A stretch of 56,074 nucleotides of DNA. It comes from Pezizomycotina sp. ARF18. Taxonomy: Eukaryota > Ascomycota. This document shows, in pieces, positions 3,251 to 45,721 of this stretch. Each line of letters opens with the position of its first letter. The stretch's first letter is position 1. The notes beneath the pieces are model-generated. The model had not been told where the DNA came from and made no database searches. It saw only the letters and a list, made by a program, of their open reading frames with translations. The stretch lies in the NCBI GenBank assembly GCA_002224055.1, contig AZLU01000006.1:455050-511123 (forward strand), written 5' to 3'. The position numbers and the translations under genes are program-made.

Positions 3251-4354
3251 TTAGACTTGCTGGTGCCTCATGGGTTCGTAAGACGAAGGGTACTGGTACC
3301 CGGGTGAGGAGCGGGGCCAGTGTGGCCGGAAGCCTGCTCGCCCATGAGAGGAGTAGTGTACGGGCTAGGGACACGCTGGTATTCGCTCTTGCCGTAACCA
3401 CCAGCAGACTTGTCGGTGTAGCCGGCACCCCTGGTCTTGCCCTTGTCGCCCTTGACAATCCTGTCGCGGCGGCCGGAGCAGCAGCAGGTGGAAAGAAGCC
3501 AGAAGAATGCAGCGGCACCGCTGATGAGGACACCGAGCCACATGATAGCGTAGGTGTGCCTGTGGAATACAGCCGTGACACCGAAGTTCTTGTGCGTCTT
3601 GTTGAAGGCGGTGGCCATGAGGCTGTAGACGACGGTGTTGAAGAGGGCACCGCCAAGGAGGGCAATGAAGGCAACGTTGGCGAAGATAGTTGTGCAGCAG
3701 CTGCCCCAGCGGGAGAGGAGACCGAACCAACCTACAGCAAACTCAACACCGGTAGCGATGATACCGACGACGAAGAGGGTGAAAGCGACGCGGAGAGGGC
3801 GCTGAAGGTCTTCAGGACCTTGTTGACTTCGGAGGGGAAGGTGAGGTTCTGTCCCTGGTTGGTCCTGTCGTCGTTGACAATGTCGACGATGTTGAAGACG
3901 AAGTAGGCCTTGGACTTGGAGCACTTCTGGACGGTGGTGGAGTTGTCCTTGTTGAACGAGCCGGCGCAGTATCCGAGAGACCAGCCTGGTACCATTCGTG
4001 GATGCCGAGCTCCTTTGCGGTTCCGCCGCCCTGGATGTTGTTGGCACCGCCCGCCCCGACCTTGTTGACTATATTATCGAATGTTGAACCGCCCACCAGT
4101 GCATCCTTAATGTTCAGGTTCCGCGTATCAACCTAGGGTTGTAATCACGAGTGTTAGCTTGAGCTCAAGTCTAAATTTTTTTAAACGGAAAGGGTTCTCT
4201 GAAGGAAGCTTACCTGTACGAAGTACATGCTCTTAACGAGCCCACCAGCCGTGCTAGTCTGCCCGAGGAATACAGCAATAATAATCAAGACGGCTGTGGC
4301 AATGGTGCCCACCATGGGCGTAAAAATACAAGCGAATCGTCCTGCTCGACCCAT
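3251..4354 (-). CDS. SUR7/PalI-family four-TM plasma-membrane protein
   Basis: Predicted fungal SUR7/PalI (claudin-like) protein; family members sit in plasma-membrane eisosome patches or act in pH sensing. Exon 1 (4354-4214) starts MGRAGRFACIF and holds TM1. A GTAAGC donor and an AG acceptor give exon 2 from 4132 (VDTRNLNIKDAL). The extracellular loop carries a WSLGYC motif and further cysteines, as in the family. TM2 (FTLFVVGIIATGVEFAVGW), TM3 (IFANVAFIALLGG) and TM4 (YAIMWLGVLISGAAAFFWLL) follow, then a cysteine cluster STCCC and a hydrophilic cytoplasmic tail ending YEPMRHQQV. The conserved reading changes frame at least three times (near 3980, near 3820 and near 3305), each explained by one base. 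Total about 330 residues. The SUR7-like assignment is firm; the exact subfamily is not. Confidence 0.8.
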
Positions 4355-24777: not shown

Positions 24778-27638
24778 TTACTCATGAACGAAAGCTTCCT
24801 CCCGCTTCTTCTTGCATGATGGAAACGAATTCTCTTCGCTGATACGGCCCGGACCGCCTCTTTCTTTAATCTCGGCTGCGATCTTAGCCAGCTTCGGCGG
24901 AGAAGTACCGGGCGTCTTACTACCCGAACCGCCCTCCGCGTTGCCTTCCTTCGATTTCAAGCCCGATGTGGAAGTAGACTTGTCCCACTCCTTAAGTCCC
25001 AAAGTGCTCAGCTCCTGCTGGAATTCCGACGGATTGTTCTTCATCACTTCCAGCCCTTCTTTTCCTTCGTCAGGAAGAGTAGGTCGAGTAGTTCGTTGAT
25101 CCCTTGCTCCGTGACCTGACATATATTTCCCGACCCACGTCTTCTTCTTTATCCAAGCCGGATTTACCCATAAGCCGTCTCCGCCTATCCATGCCAGCGC
25201 CATCCCACCCGTCATCCTCGTTATCGTCGTCCTCGTCTTCGGACCTGTAGTAGTCGTCGAGGTAGTACAGCTTCCGCTCTTCCTCCGACGGCTGCCTGCC
25301 GGGTTCCTGGTCTATTTGACCACCGGCAGTCCACTCGGCGAACGGACTGCCGCAAACGGGTTCGGGTCAAAGTTGAGCTCGGCAAGCTGCGGCGTGGCCA
25401 GCGACATCCGCCTGTGAGGGAAACCATTACTCATCGTCGAAGGCGGCCAGAGAGGCTGCCTTGTATCCCGCGGTGAACGGGCGTCATTACTCCACCGTCG
25501 CGTTATGTTGGCGTGAGGCGAGACGACCGCGCTGTCGGACCTCGTAAATACAGGGGAAATGTTACCTCGCTGCTGCTGGCGTGGTGTCCGGGCGCCACAA
25601 TAGGAGCGGGGGCGCTCTCGAGCGTTCTTTCCGTCGTCGCGGCGGTTGCGCCGGTCGTACTATTACCGGCAGCGGAGCTCGAACCAGACAATAAAGAATC
25701 CTGTGCACTGGTGCCAGCACCACCATTCGTCGCACCAGATATTGACTGCTCGCGCTGCTGCCTCATTACAAAGTGCTGGCTCTCCAGCCTTCTCCTCTCA
25801 GCCCTTTCTGCGGCTCGCTCGTTAATCCTCTCCGCCGTGTACTGTTCGCTCGCCTGCGCCGTTTCCCGCTGCTCGCGGCCTCGGTTTCCCGTCCGTGCTC
25901 CGCTAGCGCCCTGCCTATCGTCTCCGACCTCCTACCCAGCTCGTTCTGGTCCGGCACCAGCGCCTGCTGCGGCACGTCATTCAGATCGTCATCCTCGGAC
26001 TTCACCTGCCTCCTCCCTTCCCCCGGCGGTATCCCGCCCGCAAAGGCCGCCGAAATCGGCTGCGAACCGCCAGCACCGCCGCCGTCTGGTTCTGCTCCAC
26101 GACGTCCTCGTCCATGCCCGCTATCAGGTCCTTCATAAGGTCCTTCTGCAGCGCGTAGTACGCCCTGAACATCCTAAGCACGTCCTTGCGCTCGATGTAA
26201 CCGTCGTCGTTGAGGTCGTAGCTGCGGAATACCCGGCGGTGGCCCTCGATGCGGTTCTTCGGCGTGTCGGAGGAGCGCTTGCTGCTGCTGCGCATCGACA
26301 ACCCCTGTATGAACTCCTCGAAGCCGATGAGGCCGTTGCCGTCGGTGTCGTAGTAGGCGAACATGCGGTCGTATATTAGGTTCGGCGGCGGGGGGCGGAG
26401 GGAATTGTTAGGTACGAAGCATTTGTCGAAGGTGGCGCGGTTTATCGCGCCGTTTAGGCCATTCACGTCGTCGGGGAACTCGGTCGCGGCGAGGCACTTG
26501 AACTGCTCGAAGAGGGCTTCCACTTCCGTTTGATCGACTGCGAAAAAGCGGGTATCAGTTTAACAGACTCTCCTAAACATTCATAAAGCAAGGTAATACT
26601 TACTGCCAGTCTTCTGCGAGAAGCTTTTTAGCGTATCTAGCGGAATACTGAGCGGCATGAGCGATGGTTTTCCCGGGTACACTGGCGGCTGTATCTTCTT
26701 AGGATTTCCTAGGAACGGTGCCGGTATCCGTACTTTGTAGAAGAGATGTGTCTTCGGGTGCGCGTCCTGCGCCTCGCAGGATTCGCAGAGGTCAAAGTCG
26801 ATGCAGTTCGAGCAGCGGTACCGTATCCAGTAATCGGCAGCACGTTGCACAGATTACATGTAACGCCCCTGTGAACGTACCCCTGCTGTTTTGCTTGGTC
26901 CTGTACAAAAATCAAAATATTTTAGTGAAAAGGAAAGGTTCCACCTAAAAAAAAGTACTTGAACGAGTAGGAGCAAAGAAAAAGGTAGTCTCGGACCCTC
27001 CAAAGGAGGGGAAAAGGTATACCTCTGCGATTAGGTATAGTAGCTGCAGCACGTTCTGGTTCTCGTGAGACTCCTTAGGTTCCTGCTGCTGCACCATGTA
27101 CGAAAACTCGCTATCATCGCCCTCGTTCCCTCCCAGCCCTTCCCTTCCCCTCTGTTCCCTCTCGCCGCGACGCCGGCATTGTTCAGCATCGCCGTTATCG
27201 TTTCGTCCTGCGGTAGCGTGATCCCATCCATCACAGCAACGGCATTTAGCGCGGCCGCCGCGGCCGCCCTCGACGCATCCGCATCGCCGCCGTTCAGGTT
27301 CTCAACACCGTTAATATTCGCCGCTGCACTGTTCGAAGCGTTCGTCCCGTCGAGTATCGCAAGGCTCTCCTGCACGGCCGCGTTTAAGGGCGTCGAAGAA
27401 CCGCCGGCGTTTGTCGATGCGTGGGGTACGAGCCAGCCCGCGGCCTCGCGACGCGCCGCGCATTTCGCCTCCGGAGCTGCCGCTGCTTCCTGCCGTTGGC
27501 TTCGCCGGACCGCGAGGATACGTAGAGGTTGTAGAGGGATGTGATGCCCAGCGCTACGGCTACGCCGGATAGTACGAGGAGGTGGGGTAGAAACGGTCAA
27601 GGAGGGCGGAAGAAGAGGAAGGCGCTTTGCCTGACATT
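24778..27638 (-). CDS. Membrane-anchored ZZ zinc-finger and EF-hand protein
   Basis: The start at ATG 27638 (MSGKAPSSSSALLDRF) is followed by one hydrophobic segment (HLLVLSGVAVALGITSLYNLY), a likely signal anchor. An alanine/asparagine-rich linker (NASNSAAANINGVENLNGG) leads to EFSYMVQQQEPKESHENQNV. A ZZ-type zinc finger follows (GVTCNLCN, then YRCSNCIDFDLCESCE and HPKTHLFYKVR). An EF-hand region comes next, with DTDGNGLIGFEEF and DLNDDGYIERKDV, both with normal calcium-loop acidic positions. The C-terminal third is charged and low-complexity, with an acidic run near 25215-25260 (SEDEDDDNEDDGWDG). The stop is at 24778. Splice sites lie near 26900-27022 and 26537-26603. The order TM, ZZ, EF-hands suggests a calcium-responsive membrane protein; that is inference. 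Several one-base frame changes interrupt it (near 27590, 27490, 26820 and 26030). Confidence 0.75.
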
Positions 27639-29216: not shown

Positions 29217-30841
29217 ATGGCAATCACTGGCAATCAAGAAATCGTGAGTCGCGAAGCAATCCCTTTCTTCTATAGCTTCCTTTTCTAAAACTAATCCTCT
29301 TTCATTGAAATTAGGCCATAGAATGGTCTATGGTAACTCTATGCGCAATCCTCGTCGCCACAAGGATATACGTTCGTGTATATTGTAGGTCAAAATGGAC
29401 ATGGAGCGACGGCTTCGTAATTATCGCCTGGCTGTCGTTCCTATTCCAAGCGTCGATGGATACGGAACTCTTCCGGACTGGCTTCTGGTCAAGCTACAAC
29501 ACAGAAGCCCAATTACCAAACACAACACCATTTGAGGAGACAGAAATAGAAGCCCATAGGATCTACTGGCTGAAGGTATGTTGTGGATGTACCATTGCCT
29601 CTTTTCGCGATTAGCTAAAACAAAAGCTCGAAATCTTTCTCTTCTTTCGCTTTGATATAGATAATATACGTCGAAGACATTCTGTACTATAATTGCATGT
29701 TAGTGCGCTCTTCTTTTTGTTATCGCAGCTTCCTATAGCACCGTGGTTAACACAGCTACAATATAGGTACGCCGTTAAAGCATCGATGCTCCTGTTTTAT
29801 TTCGAATTGATCTCGCCATCATTAACAGTAATATACGGAGCTCTGTGGGGGACAATTTGCCTGACAATTTCAGGCTTTATAATCGAAATCTGCCTTTTAG
29901 CATTTGGGTGTCTCCCCGTGAACAGGAATTGGTACGGAACAACTCTTGCTTTCTCGGCAACAGAAAGGAAAAGAGTTTTTGTTATTGACGGATATTCCCT
30001 CCCAAATTTAGGTCTCTCGACCCTGAAATATCATGCCAATCTGTTGCATTGGACAGGATAATATTTCCGTCGCTGAGTCTCCATCTCCTAACAGATGTTT
30101 TGAGTGAGTTGTGTTTTTTCTAGCAACATAATGATTCCGTATTAGACCAGATAGCTGAGTCCGTTAACCCTTTCTTCGCCGTATTAACCAGTATATTGCT
30201 TGCCCATCCCCATAGTTAGCAAACTCAACCTGCCATTACGCCAGAAGATTGGGGTTGGCTTGATATTTGCCATCGGGTTCCTCGACGTCGCCCTGGCCGC
30301 ATTGGTGATCGGCTTGCGCTTCCAGAACACGGGAATATATTCGATCATGGAGCAGACTTGGGCAATTATTGTAGCGTGCTGCCCTGCTCTCAAAGCCTTC
30401 TTGACACGAGATGTGAGGAGGACGCTAAAGAAATATGGCCGGGAGAAAACCGTCGCCGGAGCCGGGACACAGATGGAAGTTGCCCATCCATAGTTAGCAA
30501 ACTCAACTGCCATTACGCAGAAGATTGGGGTTGGCTTGATATTTGCCATCGGGTTCCTCGACGTCGCCCTGGCCGCATTGGTGATCGGCTTGCGCTTCCA
30601 AACACGGGAATATATTCGATCATGGAGCAGACTTGGGCAATTATTGTAGCGTGCTGCCCTGCTCTCAAAGCCTTCTTGACACGAGATGTGAGGAGGACGC
30701 TAAAGAAATATGGCCGGGAGAAACGTCGCCGGAGCCGGGACACAGATGGAAGTTGCGGTTGTGCGGAAGTTTGGGTCGATTTGCAAGAGCAAAAAGAACG
30801 CAACGAACGTAGTTCAACCACGCGCACTACCGGAAAACTAG
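29217..30841 (+). CDS. Fungal rhodopsin-domain integral membrane protein (PF20684-type)
   Basis: Seven-TM protein of the large Pezizomycotina rhodopsin-domain/Pth11-related group; ligands are generally unknown. Exon 1 (29217-29243, MAITGNQEI) ends at GTGAGT and exon 2 (29315-29575) at GTATGT. Exon 3 begins at 29661. Family landmarks: VATRIYVRVYCRSKWTWSDGF in the first loop, the YVEDILYYNCM helix, AVKASMLLFYFELI, FGCLPVNRNW, and the sixth/seventh-helix region LLPIPIVSKLNLPLRQK, GLIFAIGFLDVALAALV and SIMEQTWAIIVACCPALKAF. The true tail is probably VVRKFGSICKSKKNATNVV with a stop at 30839-30841. A 280-bp direct duplication (30200-30752) repeats the last two helices. The first copy reads cleanly and the second is frame-broken but continues into the natural C-terminus. 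Other frame changes occur near 29705 and 29750. Confidence 0.8.
30200..30479 (+). repeat. Tandem duplication, copy 1 (280 bp)
   Basis: First copy of a direct repeat inside the rhodopsin-fold gene, covering the PIPIVSKLNL through AGAGTQMEV coding region. It reads in one uninterrupted frame. The boundaries share the 4-base TTGC. Confidence 0.95.
30480..30752 (+). repeat. Tandem duplication, copy 2 (273 bp)
   Basis: Second copy, directly abutting the first. I find no substitutions against copy 1. It lacks seven bases at five places: CCCC to CC, CC to C twice, a G lost in CAGAAC, and AAAACC to AAAC. The losses break the reading frame. It continues into what looks like the true end of the gene. 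Confidence 0.95.
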
Positions 30842-32013
30842 CAAAAGAGACGTGAGGATGTTTAGAGTTGTTCGACGATTGTTGCGAACAGCGGGGTATT
30901 ACAGTCGTCACACCGTCGACTGAGGAATTAAGTCGGCGGGGAGCTTAACGATTTGAAATCTTCTATATCTTGCTTTGTTTCTTGTATTCCAGCTTCTTCT
31001 GCAGCAAGAGAAAATAAGCCAAGAACGAGAGGGCGAACCTCTTCCTATCAATTCATAATGCACTAAGAGTATTCAAGTCTTTGTTAATTTCCTTATAAGC
31101 TTCAGAAGAGGGACGCTTTATATTTTCGTACTGGACGTTTCGGCGGTAGACAGTGTCGACACTGAACTGGGTAGACCAAAAAAAAAAAAAAAAAAGCCTC
31201 GTAGTGTTGCTGCTTGCATCATGTGTAAGTGCGCGTTAAAGCGGTCCCCTTATCTCTGTCCGATACAGACGCAGGAAGTGGGGCAAAAAATAACATGTTC
31301 GAAAGTGGGAAGTTCAGGCAACCCCGAAGCAAGCAAGGGAGAGGTAAAGAAAAATCACAAGCTATGAAAAGGCCGGGAGGTTAAAGTGTCAAATGCAGCT
31401 AAACAACGAGTCGGCCCAATCGCCGAAGCAGGTTTAAGCTATGCCGTAAGAATTGCACAAGCGAGAAATGTAGGGATTGCTATTTGCTGCTTTTTAGATG
31501 ATGAGATGCAGAAATGAGTAGTGGAAAGGGAAATTTTGCAGGTTGAGAGAGGAAAGAAGGGAAGAACAGGAGAACTGGCCTTTTTAGAATTCATTTTCTA
31601 TTTTTTTTCCGTTCCCCCTTAATAATAATCAGGAGCGTCAAATAAAATATCATATTAAACAATTTACAGAGCACATTTCTTTCCTTTTCTTGACCTCCCT
31701 TCGACAACCAATTTTTACCTCCATACGTCAGGGAAAGAACTTAGCTTTACCAGCGATTCAACAACGCCTCTTGATAAAAGATAATCCGTATGTTTTTCTC
31801 CTCTTCTGTTAAGATTGCCTCAAGCTCACGCCTCTAACTATCATGGTCCTCATATTCGTAGACCTCGTTAACTGAAAAATTTTTTTCTTGCTTTTTGCTT
31901 TCCGCTGGTTTTGTAGAAAAGGCTTGTCTCGGAAGGGCACACCGCAACCGTTTTACCTGTCGCGCAACCTAGAAGGATCCCTTGGATATAGTCGGTACCA
32001 AGAAACGCAGCAG
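30842..32013. other. Intergenic region
   Basis: 3' flank of the rhodopsin-fold gene and 5' flank of Erv14. An A17 run lies near 31179-31195, and T-rich patches precede the Erv14 start. No coding signal is seen. Confidence 0.5.
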
Positions 32014-34123: not shown

Positions 34124-36087
34124 ATGCCGGAAGAATCGCACATCGTGGAGGATCCGCAAGAGGGAAACCCAAGGATGAAAGCTCTACTCTGCTGCCACCG
34201 CCCGGATGCTCCCGCTGAAGAACAGCCGCTGAGCAAGAAGGAAGCCAAGAAGAAGGCGAAGGTCGACGAGATCCTGAACGAGCCCCTGAAGAAAGCCGAC
34301 AAGGATCTCATCGAGCAGGTCATGAAGGCTAACCCGAGCCTGACGAGCGGCGCCGAGGATATGAGCCAGAAGAAGCTGGAGGAGATGCTCAGAGGGCTTA
34401 AGCTTGAGGATATCATGACTGGGATGGTGCGTCAATTGAAAGCAAGATGGCGAACTTGCCATTGAGAGGATGTTACTGAGCTTTTCTCACTTTGTGTTAT
34501 GTAGGCTCCTGGTGGGAAGAACAAGAAGGACATGGCGAGCCATAAGTTCTGGCAGACGCAGCCCGTCGCAAAATGGGGTATGCTACATTAAGATGTTTTG
34601 CATGAATTTGCCTAGGAAGCTATCTTTGCTAACGTGGATCGATTATTTCTGCTAATACAGGCGAGGAGATTACCGAAGATGGAGAGATCAAGAAGGGTGT
34701 ACTCGAGGAAGTTCCGAAGGAACCTCTACCTTTGCTCGATAACTTCGAGTGGGTTGTGATGGACTTACTGATGACAAGGAGGTAAAGTAATCAAGCTCGA
34801 AGTATATTTCGTGCTTTTAATTTGGTTATTTTAACAATTGATGTTTGATCCGCACAGCTTGACGAGGTCTACGAGCTACTGGGACACTACGTCGAAGATG
34901 ACGAAGCAATGTTCCGATTTAACTACTCAGGATCTTCCTAAACTGGTACTTTAATTCCAACCCTTACAACTAAAACCTTTCAAAATAGCTCACGCCTATT
35001 CTTCTATACAGGGCACTAAAAGCACCCGGATGGCGCCGGGAATGGCACATCGGCGTCCGCGTCAAGGCCTCCCGCAAGCTCGTCGCTTTCATCTCCGGTA
35101 TACCAATCCAGCTCCGCGTCCGCGAGCGCGTCCTCAGCTGCTCCGAGATCAACTTCCTCTGCATCCACAAGAAGCTCGCTCGAAGCGCCTCGCGCCGCTC
35201 CTCATCAAAGAAATCACCGCCGTTGCAACGAGGTCGAAATATGGCAGGCCATATACACCGCTGGAGTAGTTCTGCCGAAGCCCGTGGCCAGCTGCAGGTA
35301 CTACCACCGCTCGCTGGACTGGCTGAAGCTCCACGAGGTCGGGTTCTCACTTTACCCCAAGAGCACGAAGGCGAGGCAGATCACGCGGTTCGCGCTGCCG
35401 AAGGATACTGCGACGGCGGGCTTAAGGGGGATGAAGAAGGAAGACGTAAAGCCCGTTTTGGATTTACTCAAGCGGTACCTGGAGAGGTTCGAGATGGCGC
35501 CCGTGTTCACGGAGGAGGAAATCGAGCACTGGTTCCTGCATAAGAAATCGAGGGGACGAGCCACACGGAGCGGGTGATCTGGGCGTACGTCGTGGAGGAT
35601 CCTGAGACGAAGAAGATTACGATTTCTTCTCGTTTATTCCTCGAGTCTTCCGTTATCAAGAACGTTAAGCACGCATGGTCAGGGCGGCGTACATGTTCTA
35701 CTACGCCAGCGAATCCGCCTTCGCGACGGGGAAATCGAAGGACGACGGGAAGAAGATCCTGAAGGCGAGGCTTAATGCTCTCGTGCACGATGCTCTGATC
35801 CTTGCGAAGCGGGTAAGCACTTCCTTTCAAGTTTTCCACAATCTAATTTATTTATATATTCTTTGGTGGGTAGAAATACTAATATTGTTTTGTTATATAG
35901 TTCAACTTTGATGTCTTCAACGCTCTCACGCTATTAGACAACACCCTCTTCCTACAGGACCAAAAGTTCGGCGCGGGGACGGCAGCTGCACTTTTACATT
36001 TACAACTACCGCGTCGCTCCGATCAGAGGAGGAATGGACGAGAAGCGTGGTGTGGACGAGAAAAACGGAAGCGGTATGGTGTTGTGA
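34124..36087 (+). CDS. Glycylpeptide N-tetradecanoyltransferase (N-myristoyltransferase)
   Basis: Transfers myristate from myristoyl-CoA to N-terminal glycine of proteins after Met removal. The start is [12 protein letters not shown] with a lysine-rich ribosome-targeting segment ([15 protein letters not shown]). It continues [24 protein letters not shown], and the [19 protein letters not shown] core. [60 protein letters not shown] and [19 protein letters not shown] follow, then [18 protein letters not shown] and [16 protein letters not shown]. It ends GMVL; in the family the C-terminal carboxylate is the catalytic base, so a leucine end at the normal place is meaningful. Introns: 34427-34504; one ending AATACAG before GEEITED; others near 34795, 34945 and 35812-35900. 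One-base frame changes occur near 34758, 35205, 35550, 35620, 35680 and 35985. Confidence 0.95.
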
Positions 36088-43335: not shown

Positions 43336-44824
43336 ATGAAGATATTACGGAACGCCGGTCATTTCTCGTGACCTTCTACGCCCTGCTTTTCCTCACCCAC
43401 GGCGTCAGCGGGTGTTTCGTCGTCTGCGCCGTGGCCAGCTGGTTCAGCAACACGGTCGCGCCCGCCGTGAGTTCCGCCTTCCACGCGGCGACGACGTGGG
43501 TGTCGAACGCGGCGACGACGTAGCCCACGACGTCGTCAGCGGCGTCGAAACGGTGGCCCACGACGTCGCCAGCGGCGTCGAAACGGCCGTCCACGCGGCC
43601 GTTAGCGAAGCCACCATCGTGGGCGGTGACATCGAAGAGGGTGTCGAAACGGCGGCTAACTGGGTCAAGAAGACTGCGGGTCAGGTAGGGGACGACATCA
43701 AGGAAGGCGTGGACGCCGCCGGCGCGTGGGTCGTGAAAACCGCCGACGATGTCGGGAAGGATGTAGTCTCGGGCGTGGGCACAGCGGAGCACTGGGTCGT
43801 CGACGAGGCGGACAACGTCGGCCACTGGGCCGTTAACACGGCCGACGACGTGGGCAACTGGATCAAAAAACACCGCCAGCGAAGCTGGCCAGTGGATTCA
43901 AAAGGAAGCGGGCGTCGTGGGTCACTGGCTGCTTAAAGCGGCGCAGTCGCTACGCAGTTCGTCATACAAACGGTCGAGGGCGTCTGGCAGGAGATCAAGG
44001 TGTCGCACTGGGAATTTCCATGCTAGGTAAATTCGTCGCCATGGAGGTGGAAGGTCTGTTCACGCCGGCGCAGGTTGACGAGCCGATCTCGGACAGGACG
44101 CCGCCGCCGCTTTACGATCCCAGCTTTCCGCAGTATAACAGTACGTAATAGGCTTTCCTTTCTTCCTCTTCGTTTTTTTTTTTTTTTTTTTTTTTGTTTC
44201 TTAGTTGGAAAAAGAAATTTTAAAATATATATACCAGCACTAAACTCGAAAAAACAGATTGCACAGCAGGTTACGTCGGCCCTCGCCGAAAACCAAACAG
44301 AGCTGATAACGAAGGACCTAACCATCCTCTTCAACAAAATGGACAACGTCTCCGGGGAAGCCTACTGGAACTGGATGCGCTGCCCGGGGCGGTACAACTT
44401 CACCTCGGGCATGATATCCCGCTGGTATAATATGCTGACGGAAGACACGCAGCTGTTCATCCTGGGCTTCAATTTCAACACCACCCAGAGCTTTCCCGCT
44501 GAAGCAAACGGGGAGATGCAGCAGCCCACAGGCGCGTGGAAGAGCTGCGATGGCATATTCTACGACCTGAGCTCCGCGGTCAGCTGCGAGTTCAACAACC
44601 TCATCGCGTGGGTGAAGACGATCAGCTGGGCGGACGTGTGGAAGGCTGGAAAATTCATCATGACATTCGCGCTGGATTGGGTCACACTCGGCGTTTTCAG
44701 CGGCGTCGTGAACGCCGTTAGCGATATTCAGCACCACGATTGGTGGGGTTGTGAAGGATATAGCTACGACCGTGCTTTTTCGTTTTTATCTTGCTGTAAT
44801 GAACTTGTTCAATGGGAAGGCTAA
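43336..44824 (+). CDS. Predicted secreted protein with tandem 11-residue (hendecad) repeats
   Basis: Unknown family. The start at 43336 (MKILRNAGHF) runs, after one base correction, into a hydrophobic signal-peptide core (VTFYALLFLTHGVSG). At least fifteen consecutive 11-residue units follow at about 43455-43950. Examples are VAHDVVSGVET, VAHDVASGVET, AANWVKKTAGQ, VGDDIKEGVDA, AGAWVVKTADD, VGKDVVSGVGT and VGHWLLKAAQS. V/A/W/I recurs at positions 1, 5 and 9 with charged residues between, predicting long amphipathic helices. A proline-rich hinge (DRTPPPLYDPSFPQY) precedes an intron, 44141-44237. Exon 2 (44238-44824) encodes a C-terminal domain with NQT, NFT and NTT sequons, six cysteines and a hydrophobic segment (IMTFALDWVTLGVFSGVVNAV). 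It ends ELVQWEG. Frame changes: near 43371, 43521, 43867, 43940 and 44010. Similar 11-mers occur in LEA-3 proteins, apolipoproteins and synuclein; homology to any is not shown. Confidence 0.6.
43523..43588 (+). repeat. 33-bp direct repeat encoding hendecad units
   Basis: Two adjacent 33-bp units (43523-43555 and 43556-43588) match at 30 of 33 bases. They encode two nearly identical 11-residue repeats of the secreted protein and show recent expansion of the array. Confidence 0.9.
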
Positions 44825-45721
44825 GGAGGAAAATATTAAAACTGAAGAAATAATATTCATAAGATTATAAAAACTCATTTTTTTTCCGTGCACAGATGCT
44901 TATATAGAACGAGATAATCGCTTCATTAATCTTGGATATATAGAAGAGAAAGAAAAAAAAAAAAGAGGATATACACAGGTAGATATAGTTATGTACCTAG
45001 GTATATAGATATACTCAAAGAAACAAATAATTATATGAATTTATACTTTAAGAGAAAGCAACCCGGTATCCGTTATCACTAACACAAAAATAAAATAATA
45101 ATAAAAAACCCCTCGCGCAATACATGCCAACATATTCATACACAAAGAAAAAGGTATTAAATACATATGATCGGTGTAATAAAGGAGTGGAAGAAGGGAA
45201 CACATAAAAAAGGTAGATAGTCGAAGAAAGAGCAATGGGAGTTTGTATATATACGTGTAAAAGAAGATCGGAAAAAAAAAGTTTGTGAAAAAAAGGGATT
45301 CGAAGGGGGAACCATCGTGTGTTTACTTCATACGCTCAGTTGATATGCAAGAGAATAGAAAAGAGATGCGAACCAATTGCAAAGAGGGAATAACGTCTCG
45401 CTCATTGAAGAGAAGGAACAATAGTAGAGGTGAGAAGAAGAAAAAGTAAGCAAGGGAACAACTGAACTTGATTTTTACCGTTGACGCCATGTAATAAAGA
45501 ATTGTCAAAGACGAATGGCTTCGGGAACTCGTGAAAATAAAAAGGCAAAACAAACATGGGCATTTACAAAAAGGATAGCCCAAGAAAATACAAAGGCACG
45601 GGATAGAAAAGCTAGTGTCGCTTGTCTGGTGGGCATAGATTATTGAGAAAAAAAATTCGGAAGCGGATGGAAATTGCATCCCTAGCCCAAGGGAAAGTTG
45701 AGATAAAGAGAGGGAGCTCAT
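44825..45721. other. Intergenic region between convergent genes
   Basis: 3' flanks of the hendecad-repeat gene and the large minus-strand gene. The plus strand is purine-rich with several short A runs. Open frames on the minus strand (45323-45721, 45041-45235) are low-complexity and phenylalanine/serine-rich, so I do not call them genes. Confidence 0.5.

What the first reader, a model, noticed from the sequence alone, without database searches (positions are those of the whole stretch)
43336..44824. Secreted fungal protein built on at least fifteen exact 11-residue repeats
After signal-peptide-like sequence, the reading falls into consecutive 11-residue units with no spacing breaks, alternating a V-x3-V-x2-GV-x-T type with an A-x2-WV-x3-A type. 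Strict hendecad periodicity with hydrophobics at 1, 5 and 9 predicts long amphipathic helices, as in LEA-3, apolipoproteins and synuclein. Regular tryptophan is unusual for those families. A separate C-terminal domain with glycosylation sequons and six cysteines follows after a proline hinge. I recognise no known family. Role is inference: surface or lipid binding, or stress protection outside the cell.
Basis: partly seen in the sequence, partly recalled or inferred. Interest (0 to 1): 0.75.

Follow-up and report, generated by a model that had tools for sequence, protein, structure and literature searches.

The report
Fungal protein of 11-residue helical repeats
A fungal gene, split into several reading frames by what look like sequencing errors, encodes a probably secreted protein with a long acidic helix made of similar 11-residue units, and none of the sequence collections searched held a relative.

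Summary
The repeat is real. Ten complete 11-residue units follow one another without a phase break in one open + strand frame (43523-43852); about three more read on across a frame change. Units 4-9 alternate as a 22-residue super-repeat (xxDVxxGVxTA / GxWVxxTADxV); earlier and later units do not alternate. This ORF ranks first of 125 in the window at lag 22 (z 13.0) and lag 11 (5.9); second is its own antisense (5.9, 5.2). Hydrophobicity peaks at 98.5 degrees per residue, the 3-11 helix value, and AlphaFold2 on the single sequence gives almost continuous helix (pLDDT 78.7). The + strand is probably coding, though codon usage alone cannot tell over the repeat. The frame breaks look assembly-wide: HSP70, actin and N-myristoyltransferase genes break likewise. 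The gene is single-copy in a 46.4 Mb fungal assembly. No family or relative was found, but no fungal collection was available, so 'orphan' is untested. Corrections: fifteen exact units is too many; three of six cysteines lie in a doubtful frame; the N-terminus spans frame changes. Best reading: a secreted, acidic, weakly hydrophobic amphipathic-helix protein that coats an interface, with a hendecad stalk as close rival. New variant of a known kind; moderate interest.

The parts
43336..43371 (+). Putative start codon (ATG at 43336) and the first 11 residues, frame 1, ending at a stop
   Evidence: Six-frame reading; weak codon score (-8.2 with one stop); linked to the next piece only by inference
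43338..43520 (+). Frame 0 piece: hydrophobic signal-peptide-like stretch (best 19-residue hydropathy 2.04), a CxxxC stretch, then degenerate repeat-like units whose frame is doubtful (frame 2 scores better over 43455-43520)
43523..43852 (+). Ten complete 11-residue units in one open frame (frame 2); units 4-9 alternate D-type and W-type; the first two units are near-identical in DNA (33-bp period, 96% matches)
43853..43946 (+). Continuation of the repeat, about three more W-type units, read partly in frame 2 and partly in frame 0
43946..44015 (+). Degenerate helical continuation (frame 2, score 8.7; antisense 8.9)
44011..44140 (+). End of the repeat region and proline-rich stretch (frame 1, score 6.9)
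44141..44204 (+). Probable intron: GTACGT donor, poly-T tract, TTAG acceptor at 44204; an alternative acceptor at 44237 keeps the same phase
   Evidence: splice sites by eye only
44238..44737 (+). C-terminal domain, frame 2: four N-x-S/T sequons, three Cys, a hydrophobic stretch near its end (19-residue hydropathy 1.77)
44738..44824 (+). 3' tail, frame uncertain: frame 2 (three Cys, stop at 44822-44824) or frame 0 (hydrophobic tail, stop at 44868-44870)

Best explanation
It is a single-copy fungal gene for a secreted or cell-surface protein. Its first exon encodes a signal peptide and about 13 hendecads that form one long 3-11 amphipathic helix. The face is narrow and weakly hydrophobic (Val/Ala/Ile at positions 4, 8 and 11), Trp or Asp sits on one flank (position 3), and the rest is strongly acidic. 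The second exon encodes a glycosylatable domain with cysteines. Most likely the helix unfolds onto an interface outside the cell (lipid, waxy surface or air-water) and coats it, as perilipin 4 and apolipoproteins coat lipid surfaces, while the C-terminal domain holds it to the wall or to a partner. Shown: the repeat, its period and phase, predicted helicity, copy number. Well supported: coding strand. Inferred: secretion, intron, exon joining, and any interface binding.
For: Hydrophobic-moment peak at 98.5 degrees, 0.302; at 98.18 degrees 0 of 2000 shuffles reach the observed 0.294, while the heptad angle gives 0.063. Columns 4, 8 and 11 hold only V, A or I. AlphaFold2 on the single sequence: helix 2-33 and 37-118 of 119, best model pLDDT 78.7. 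Perilipin 4, whose giant repetitive helix lacks bulky hydrophobic residues, forms a stable layer on oil droplets (PMC8064757, abstract and passages); 3-11 helices are generally associated with repetitions of 11, 22 or 33 residues in apolipoproteins, synucleins and perilipins (PMC6164224, passages). Signal-like hydrophobic N-terminus and four sequons in exon 2.
Against: Net charge -17 per 111 residues with 5 basic residues argues against binding acidic membranes and is unlike Lys-rich lipid-binding 11-mers (recalled). The three-position face suits a coiled coil equally. No sequence relative of tested function. The N-terminus spans two or three frames and codon usage prefers frame 2 over 43455-43520. 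The other four AlphaFold2 models reach only 43.8-73.4; the C-terminal model is uninformative (pLDDT 32.0). No expression data.
Confidence: 0.38

Rival explanations
1. The hendecads form a right-handed coiled-coil stalk, with the helix oligomerising through its V/A face, that holds the glycosylated C-terminal domain away from the cell wall; no lipid is bound.
For: Positions 4, 8 and 11 have the 4-3-4 spacing of a hendecad core; the best single-sequence model is long helix.
Against: Core is small (V/A) and Gly is frequent (14 of 111); the Foldseek search of the helix gave 24 matches at E 2.5-9.5, some of them coiled coils, and none at E <= 0.001.
Confidence: 0.3
2. The protein is an extracellular stress protectant of LEA type: disordered when wet, helical when dried.
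For: Acidic, Gly/Ala/Asp/Glu-rich, 11-residue periodicity; Artemia LEA proteins with long predicted amphipathic helices protect liposomes against desiccation (PMC6164224, passage).
Against: No Pfam LEA family at E <= 1; recurrent Trp and low Lys are unlike group 3 LEA proteins (recalled); probable signal peptide and sequon-bearing domain.
Confidence: 0.12
3. It is a membrane-active or host-directed secreted protein: the helix and the hydrophobic C-terminal stretches insert into a target membrane.
For: Hydrophobic stretch near the end of exon 2 (19-residue hydropathy 1.77) and a moderately hydrophobic tail in frame 0 (1.34).
Against: Helix is acidic and weakly hydrophobic; no family match for the pieces scanned; nothing is known of the fungus or any host.
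Confidence: 0.1
4. The locus is a decaying pseudogene, and the repeat is no longer translated.
For: About five frame changes in the first exon and a possible sixth near 44738.
Against: Of 26 junctions between pieces of conserved genes that I tabulated (3 HSP70 genes, 1 actin, NMT), 19 change frame with no room for an intron, in 6,234 matched bases; between-unit differences still look like those of a coding sequence.
Confidence: 0.1

Closest known systems
Perilipin 4 and other perilipin 11-mer regions
   Same: Long, repetitive, weakly hydrophobic 3-11 helix
   Different: Perilipins coat intracellular lipid droplets, with 33-residue units in Plin4 (PMC8064757, passages); here a signal-like N-terminus, 22-residue super-repeat in part, recurrent Trp, net -17, and no Perilipin match in the pieces or the genome (a search that rang nowhere, so weak)
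Exchangeable apolipoproteins (apoA-I type 22-mers)
   Same: Paired 11-mers, predicted amphipathic helix, secreted
   Different: No Pfam match; no proline between units (proline punctuation of apoA-I recalled); few basic residues
Synucleins
   Same: 11-residue repeats with Gly-Val and Thr positions (recalled for synuclein)
   Different: No Pfam match; acidic repeat, no Lys-rich motif (motif recalled)
Group 3 LEA proteins
   Same: 11-residue periodicity, hydrophilic (recalled)
   Different: No Pfam match; Trp-containing; apparently secreted and with a separate Cys-bearing domain
Hendecad coiled coils
   Same: 4-3-4 spacing of hydrophobic positions
   Different: No PDB sequence match (best E 0.11) and no significant fold match; core of small residues

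Membership tests
LEA group 3 (Pfam LEA_4) | Match to the family profile | tested here: not met
   Pfam scan of four pieces (P0001, P0002, P0003 and 44237-44821) at E <= 1: only UBA_7 at 0.087 for the repeat
Exchangeable apolipoprotein | Match to the family profile | tested here: not met
   PDB sequence search of the repeat lists three chains at E <= 10, none an apolipoprotein
Exchangeable apolipoprotein | Tandem 11/22-residue amphipathic helical repeats | tested here: met
Exchangeable apolipoprotein | Reversible lipid binding | not testable with these tools
   Needs purified peptide
Synuclein | Match to the family profile | tested here: not met
Perilipin | Match to the Perilipin profile | tested here: not met
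   pieces; own genome, but no control genome rang either
Perilipin | Intracellular lipid-droplet location | not testable with these tools
   N-terminus is signal-like, which speaks against it
Hydrophobin or other known fungal surface family | Match to any Pfam profile by the C-terminal domain | tested here: not met
   No family at E <= 1 for 44237-44821 frame 2
Hendecad coiled coil | 3-11 periodicity of hydrophobic residues | tested here: met
Hendecad coiled coil | Oligomerisation through the core | not testable with these tools
   Needs ultracentrifugation or crosslinking

The most novel reading that the evidence does not exclude
A founding member of an unrecognised family of secreted fungal interface proteins: an acidic 3-11 helix with recurrent tryptophans on its flank, fused to a new glycosylated Cys domain, doing for the outside of a fungus what perilipins do inside cells.
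Probability: 0.2. Interest if true: 0.65.

Novelty: new variant of a known kind. Interest (0 to 1): 0.36.

Why it matters
Long 11-mer amphipathic helices are known mainly from intracellular or blood lipid-coating proteins and from LEA proteins (partly recalled; PMC6164224 passages). A secreted fungal version with recurrent Trp would widen the range of this design and would be a candidate surface-active protein outside the hydrophobins. The case also warns that gene models of this assembly may be unreliable: in the conserved genes tabulated, frame breaks occur about once per 330 matched bases.

Tried and rejected
Antisense reading: an open frame on the - strand (43376-43897) also shows 11-residue periodicity, and its codon score over the repeat is slightly higher than the sense one (70.1 against 67.5). 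Rejected, not excluded, because differences between units pile up at + third positions (300 of 495 comparisons) and are fewest at + first positions (171 of 495), which are the third positions of that antisense frame; residue entropy is lower in the sense frame (1.63 versus 2.07 bits), lag-22 similarity higher (z 10.0 versus 5.3), and exon 2 favours the + frame (37.3, no stop, against 20.3 with two stops).

Introns as cause of the frame changes: rejected as a general cause, because 19 of the 26 junctions tabulated in conserved genes change frame where the DNA gap about equals the profile gap; the other 7 leave room for an intron, and 2 of those keep the frame. In this gene only 44141-44204 or -44237 looks like an intron.

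Relatives: GTDB contigs with the C-terminal domain (33 pattern matches, none confirmed) and the repeat (88, none confirmed); IMG/VR (2, none; 5, none); plasmids with the repeat only (none); phages with the C-terminal domain (none) and the repeat (one 28.8% hit at E 0.1, taken as chance). The related-loci queries were single proteins, which find close relatives only. PDB sequences: none for the C-terminal domain; best E 0.11 for the repeat. NCBIfam: three weak hits for the repeat, best E 0.011 with 16.4 bits against a cut-off of 100, taken as compositional. Fold search of the helix: 24 matches at E <= 10, none at E <= 0.001. The C-terminal model (pLDDT 32.0) was not searched. Not scanned against families on their own: the short pieces 43866-43946, 43946-44015 and the frame 0 tail.

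Papers: six searches showed 20, 15, 12, 12, 12 and 10 of 1,272, 511, 39, 241, 47 and 308 papers; among those shown I saw no fungal secreted protein with 11-residue helical repeats. Titles and abstract beginnings only, except passages of PMC6164224 and PMC8064757. The lists are capped, so absence from print is not claimed.

Full report
What is there. On the + strand, 43523-43879 reads without a stop as consecutive 11-residue units. Ten are complete (43523-43852). Units 1, 2, 4, 6 and 8 are of a D type (xxDVxxGVxTA), units 5, 7, 9 and 10 of a W type (GxWVxxTADxV), and unit 3 is neither; alternation is therefore strict only over units 4-9. The first two units are near-identical in DNA (33-bp period, 96% matches). 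Columns 4, 8 and 11 hold only V, A or I; column 3 is D or W with one A; column 7 is G in the five D units and T or E in the W units. About three more W-type units read on in 43853-43946 across a frame change.

Chance. Similarity at lags 11 and 22 has z 6.5 and 10.0 against 500 shuffles of the ten units. Over all 125 ORFs of 100 or more codons in the window, with the best stretch of about 100 residues taken and 300 shuffles each, this ORF is first at both lags; its antisense ORF is second; the best of the remaining 123 reach 3.4 at lag 22 and 3.3 at lag 11. The hydrophobic moment peaks at 98.5 degrees (0.302); 0 of 2000 shuffles reach the value at 98.18 degrees, and the highest peak at any angle from 60 to 180 in 500 shuffles is 0.268.

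Which strand. Codon usage trained on 2,620 codons (25 stretches of conserved genes) does not separate sense from antisense over the repeat: 67.5 for + frame 2, 70.1 for the antisense frame. The between-unit differences do: 171, 280 and 300 of 495 comparisons at sense positions 1, 2 and 3, although part of the low count at position 1 is the G-rich first position of GNN codons. Exon 2 favours + frame 2 (37.3, no stop) over the best antisense frame (20.3, two stops). The signal-like N-terminus and the pyrimidine tract before the acceptor are on the + strand. I take + as coding.

Frame breaks. The first exon changes frame about five times (ATG in frame 1, signal-like stretch in frame 0, repeat in frame 2, then 0, 2 and 1). 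Codon scores back frame 0 for 43359-43412 (8.1), frame 2 for the repeat, frame 0 for 43866-43946 (10.2), frame 2 for 43946-44015 (8.7) and frame 1 for 44011-44140 (6.9). They do not back frame 0 for 43455-43520 (-3.4, against 16.1 for frame 2), although the frame 0 peptide there resembles a W-type unit; where the change from 0 to 2 lies is thus open. Conserved genes break likewise. HSP70 on contig C49 is covered from profile position 5 to 597 by seven pieces with six frame changes and no intron room; with two more HSP70 genes, one actin and NMT (in this window), 19 of 26 tabulated junctions change frame with no room for an intron, in 6,234 matched bases (overlaps counted twice). I chose these genes; other HSP70 and actin places and all kinases were not tabulated. 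At that rate about 2.5 changes are expected in the 805-base first exon (own arithmetic), so five is somewhat high. Assembly error is the simplest cause; a pseudogene is not excluded.

Copy number and organism. Exon 2 DNA, the repeat protein and the exon 2 protein each match one place in the 46,361,250-base genome, at E <= 10 for the proteins; the tool scores only its best candidates. The genome has 23 Zn2Cys6 matches at E <= 0.001, a family that rang in 0 of 14 control genomes, and the window holds a SUR7/PalI match, so it is fungal (both families as fungal markers: recalled). The species was not determined.

The rest of the gene. A GTACGT donor at 44141 and acceptors at 44204 or 44237 fit an intron in the same phase (read by eye). 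Exon 2 in frame 2 scores 37.3 from 44238 to 44737, against -23.7 and -159.3 in the other + frames, with four sequons and three cysteines. From 44738 frame 2 scores -8.0, frame 0 -0.7, and one antisense frame 1.9, so this tail and its three cysteines are uncertain. AlphaFold2 failed on this domain (pLDDT 32.0) and gave helix for the repeat (pLDDT 78.7, pTM 0.40; the five models range from 43.8 to 78.7).

What it works like. Period, face and length match 3-11 helices of interface-coating proteins (PMC6164224, PMC8064757; passages). The charge is unusual: 22 acidic, 5 basic and 5 His in 111 residues. Position 3 (Trp or Asp) lies about 94 degrees from the centre of the face, opposite position 5 (mostly Val) at 103 degrees. 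A Trp there could sit at lipid headgroup level or pack in a helix bundle. I put interface coating first and a hendecad stalk close second.

Membership. No Pfam or NCBIfam cut-off is met by the four pieces scanned, and no sequence relative was found in the prokaryote, viral, phage, plasmid or PDB collections searched. None of these holds fungal proteomes, so 'no known family' is supported and 'no relatives' is not tested.

Noticed in passing
G000 contigs C49, C70, C303, C382; window 35004-35295: Frame breaks in conserved genes (HSP70, actin, N-myristoyltransferase), about one per 330 matched bases: 19 of 26 tabulated junctions.
   Followed up: yes
window 43376-43897, - strand: A 173-codon antisense ORF with 11-residue periodicity and codon scores as good as the sense frame.
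   Followed up: yes
window 30220-30855, + strand: One ORF translation appears to hold the same stretch twice, the second copy shifting frame part-way: looks like a local duplication (by eye).
   Followed up: no
window 3268-4068 and 26002-26559, - strand: SUR7/PalI family match and EF-hand protein.
   Followed up: no
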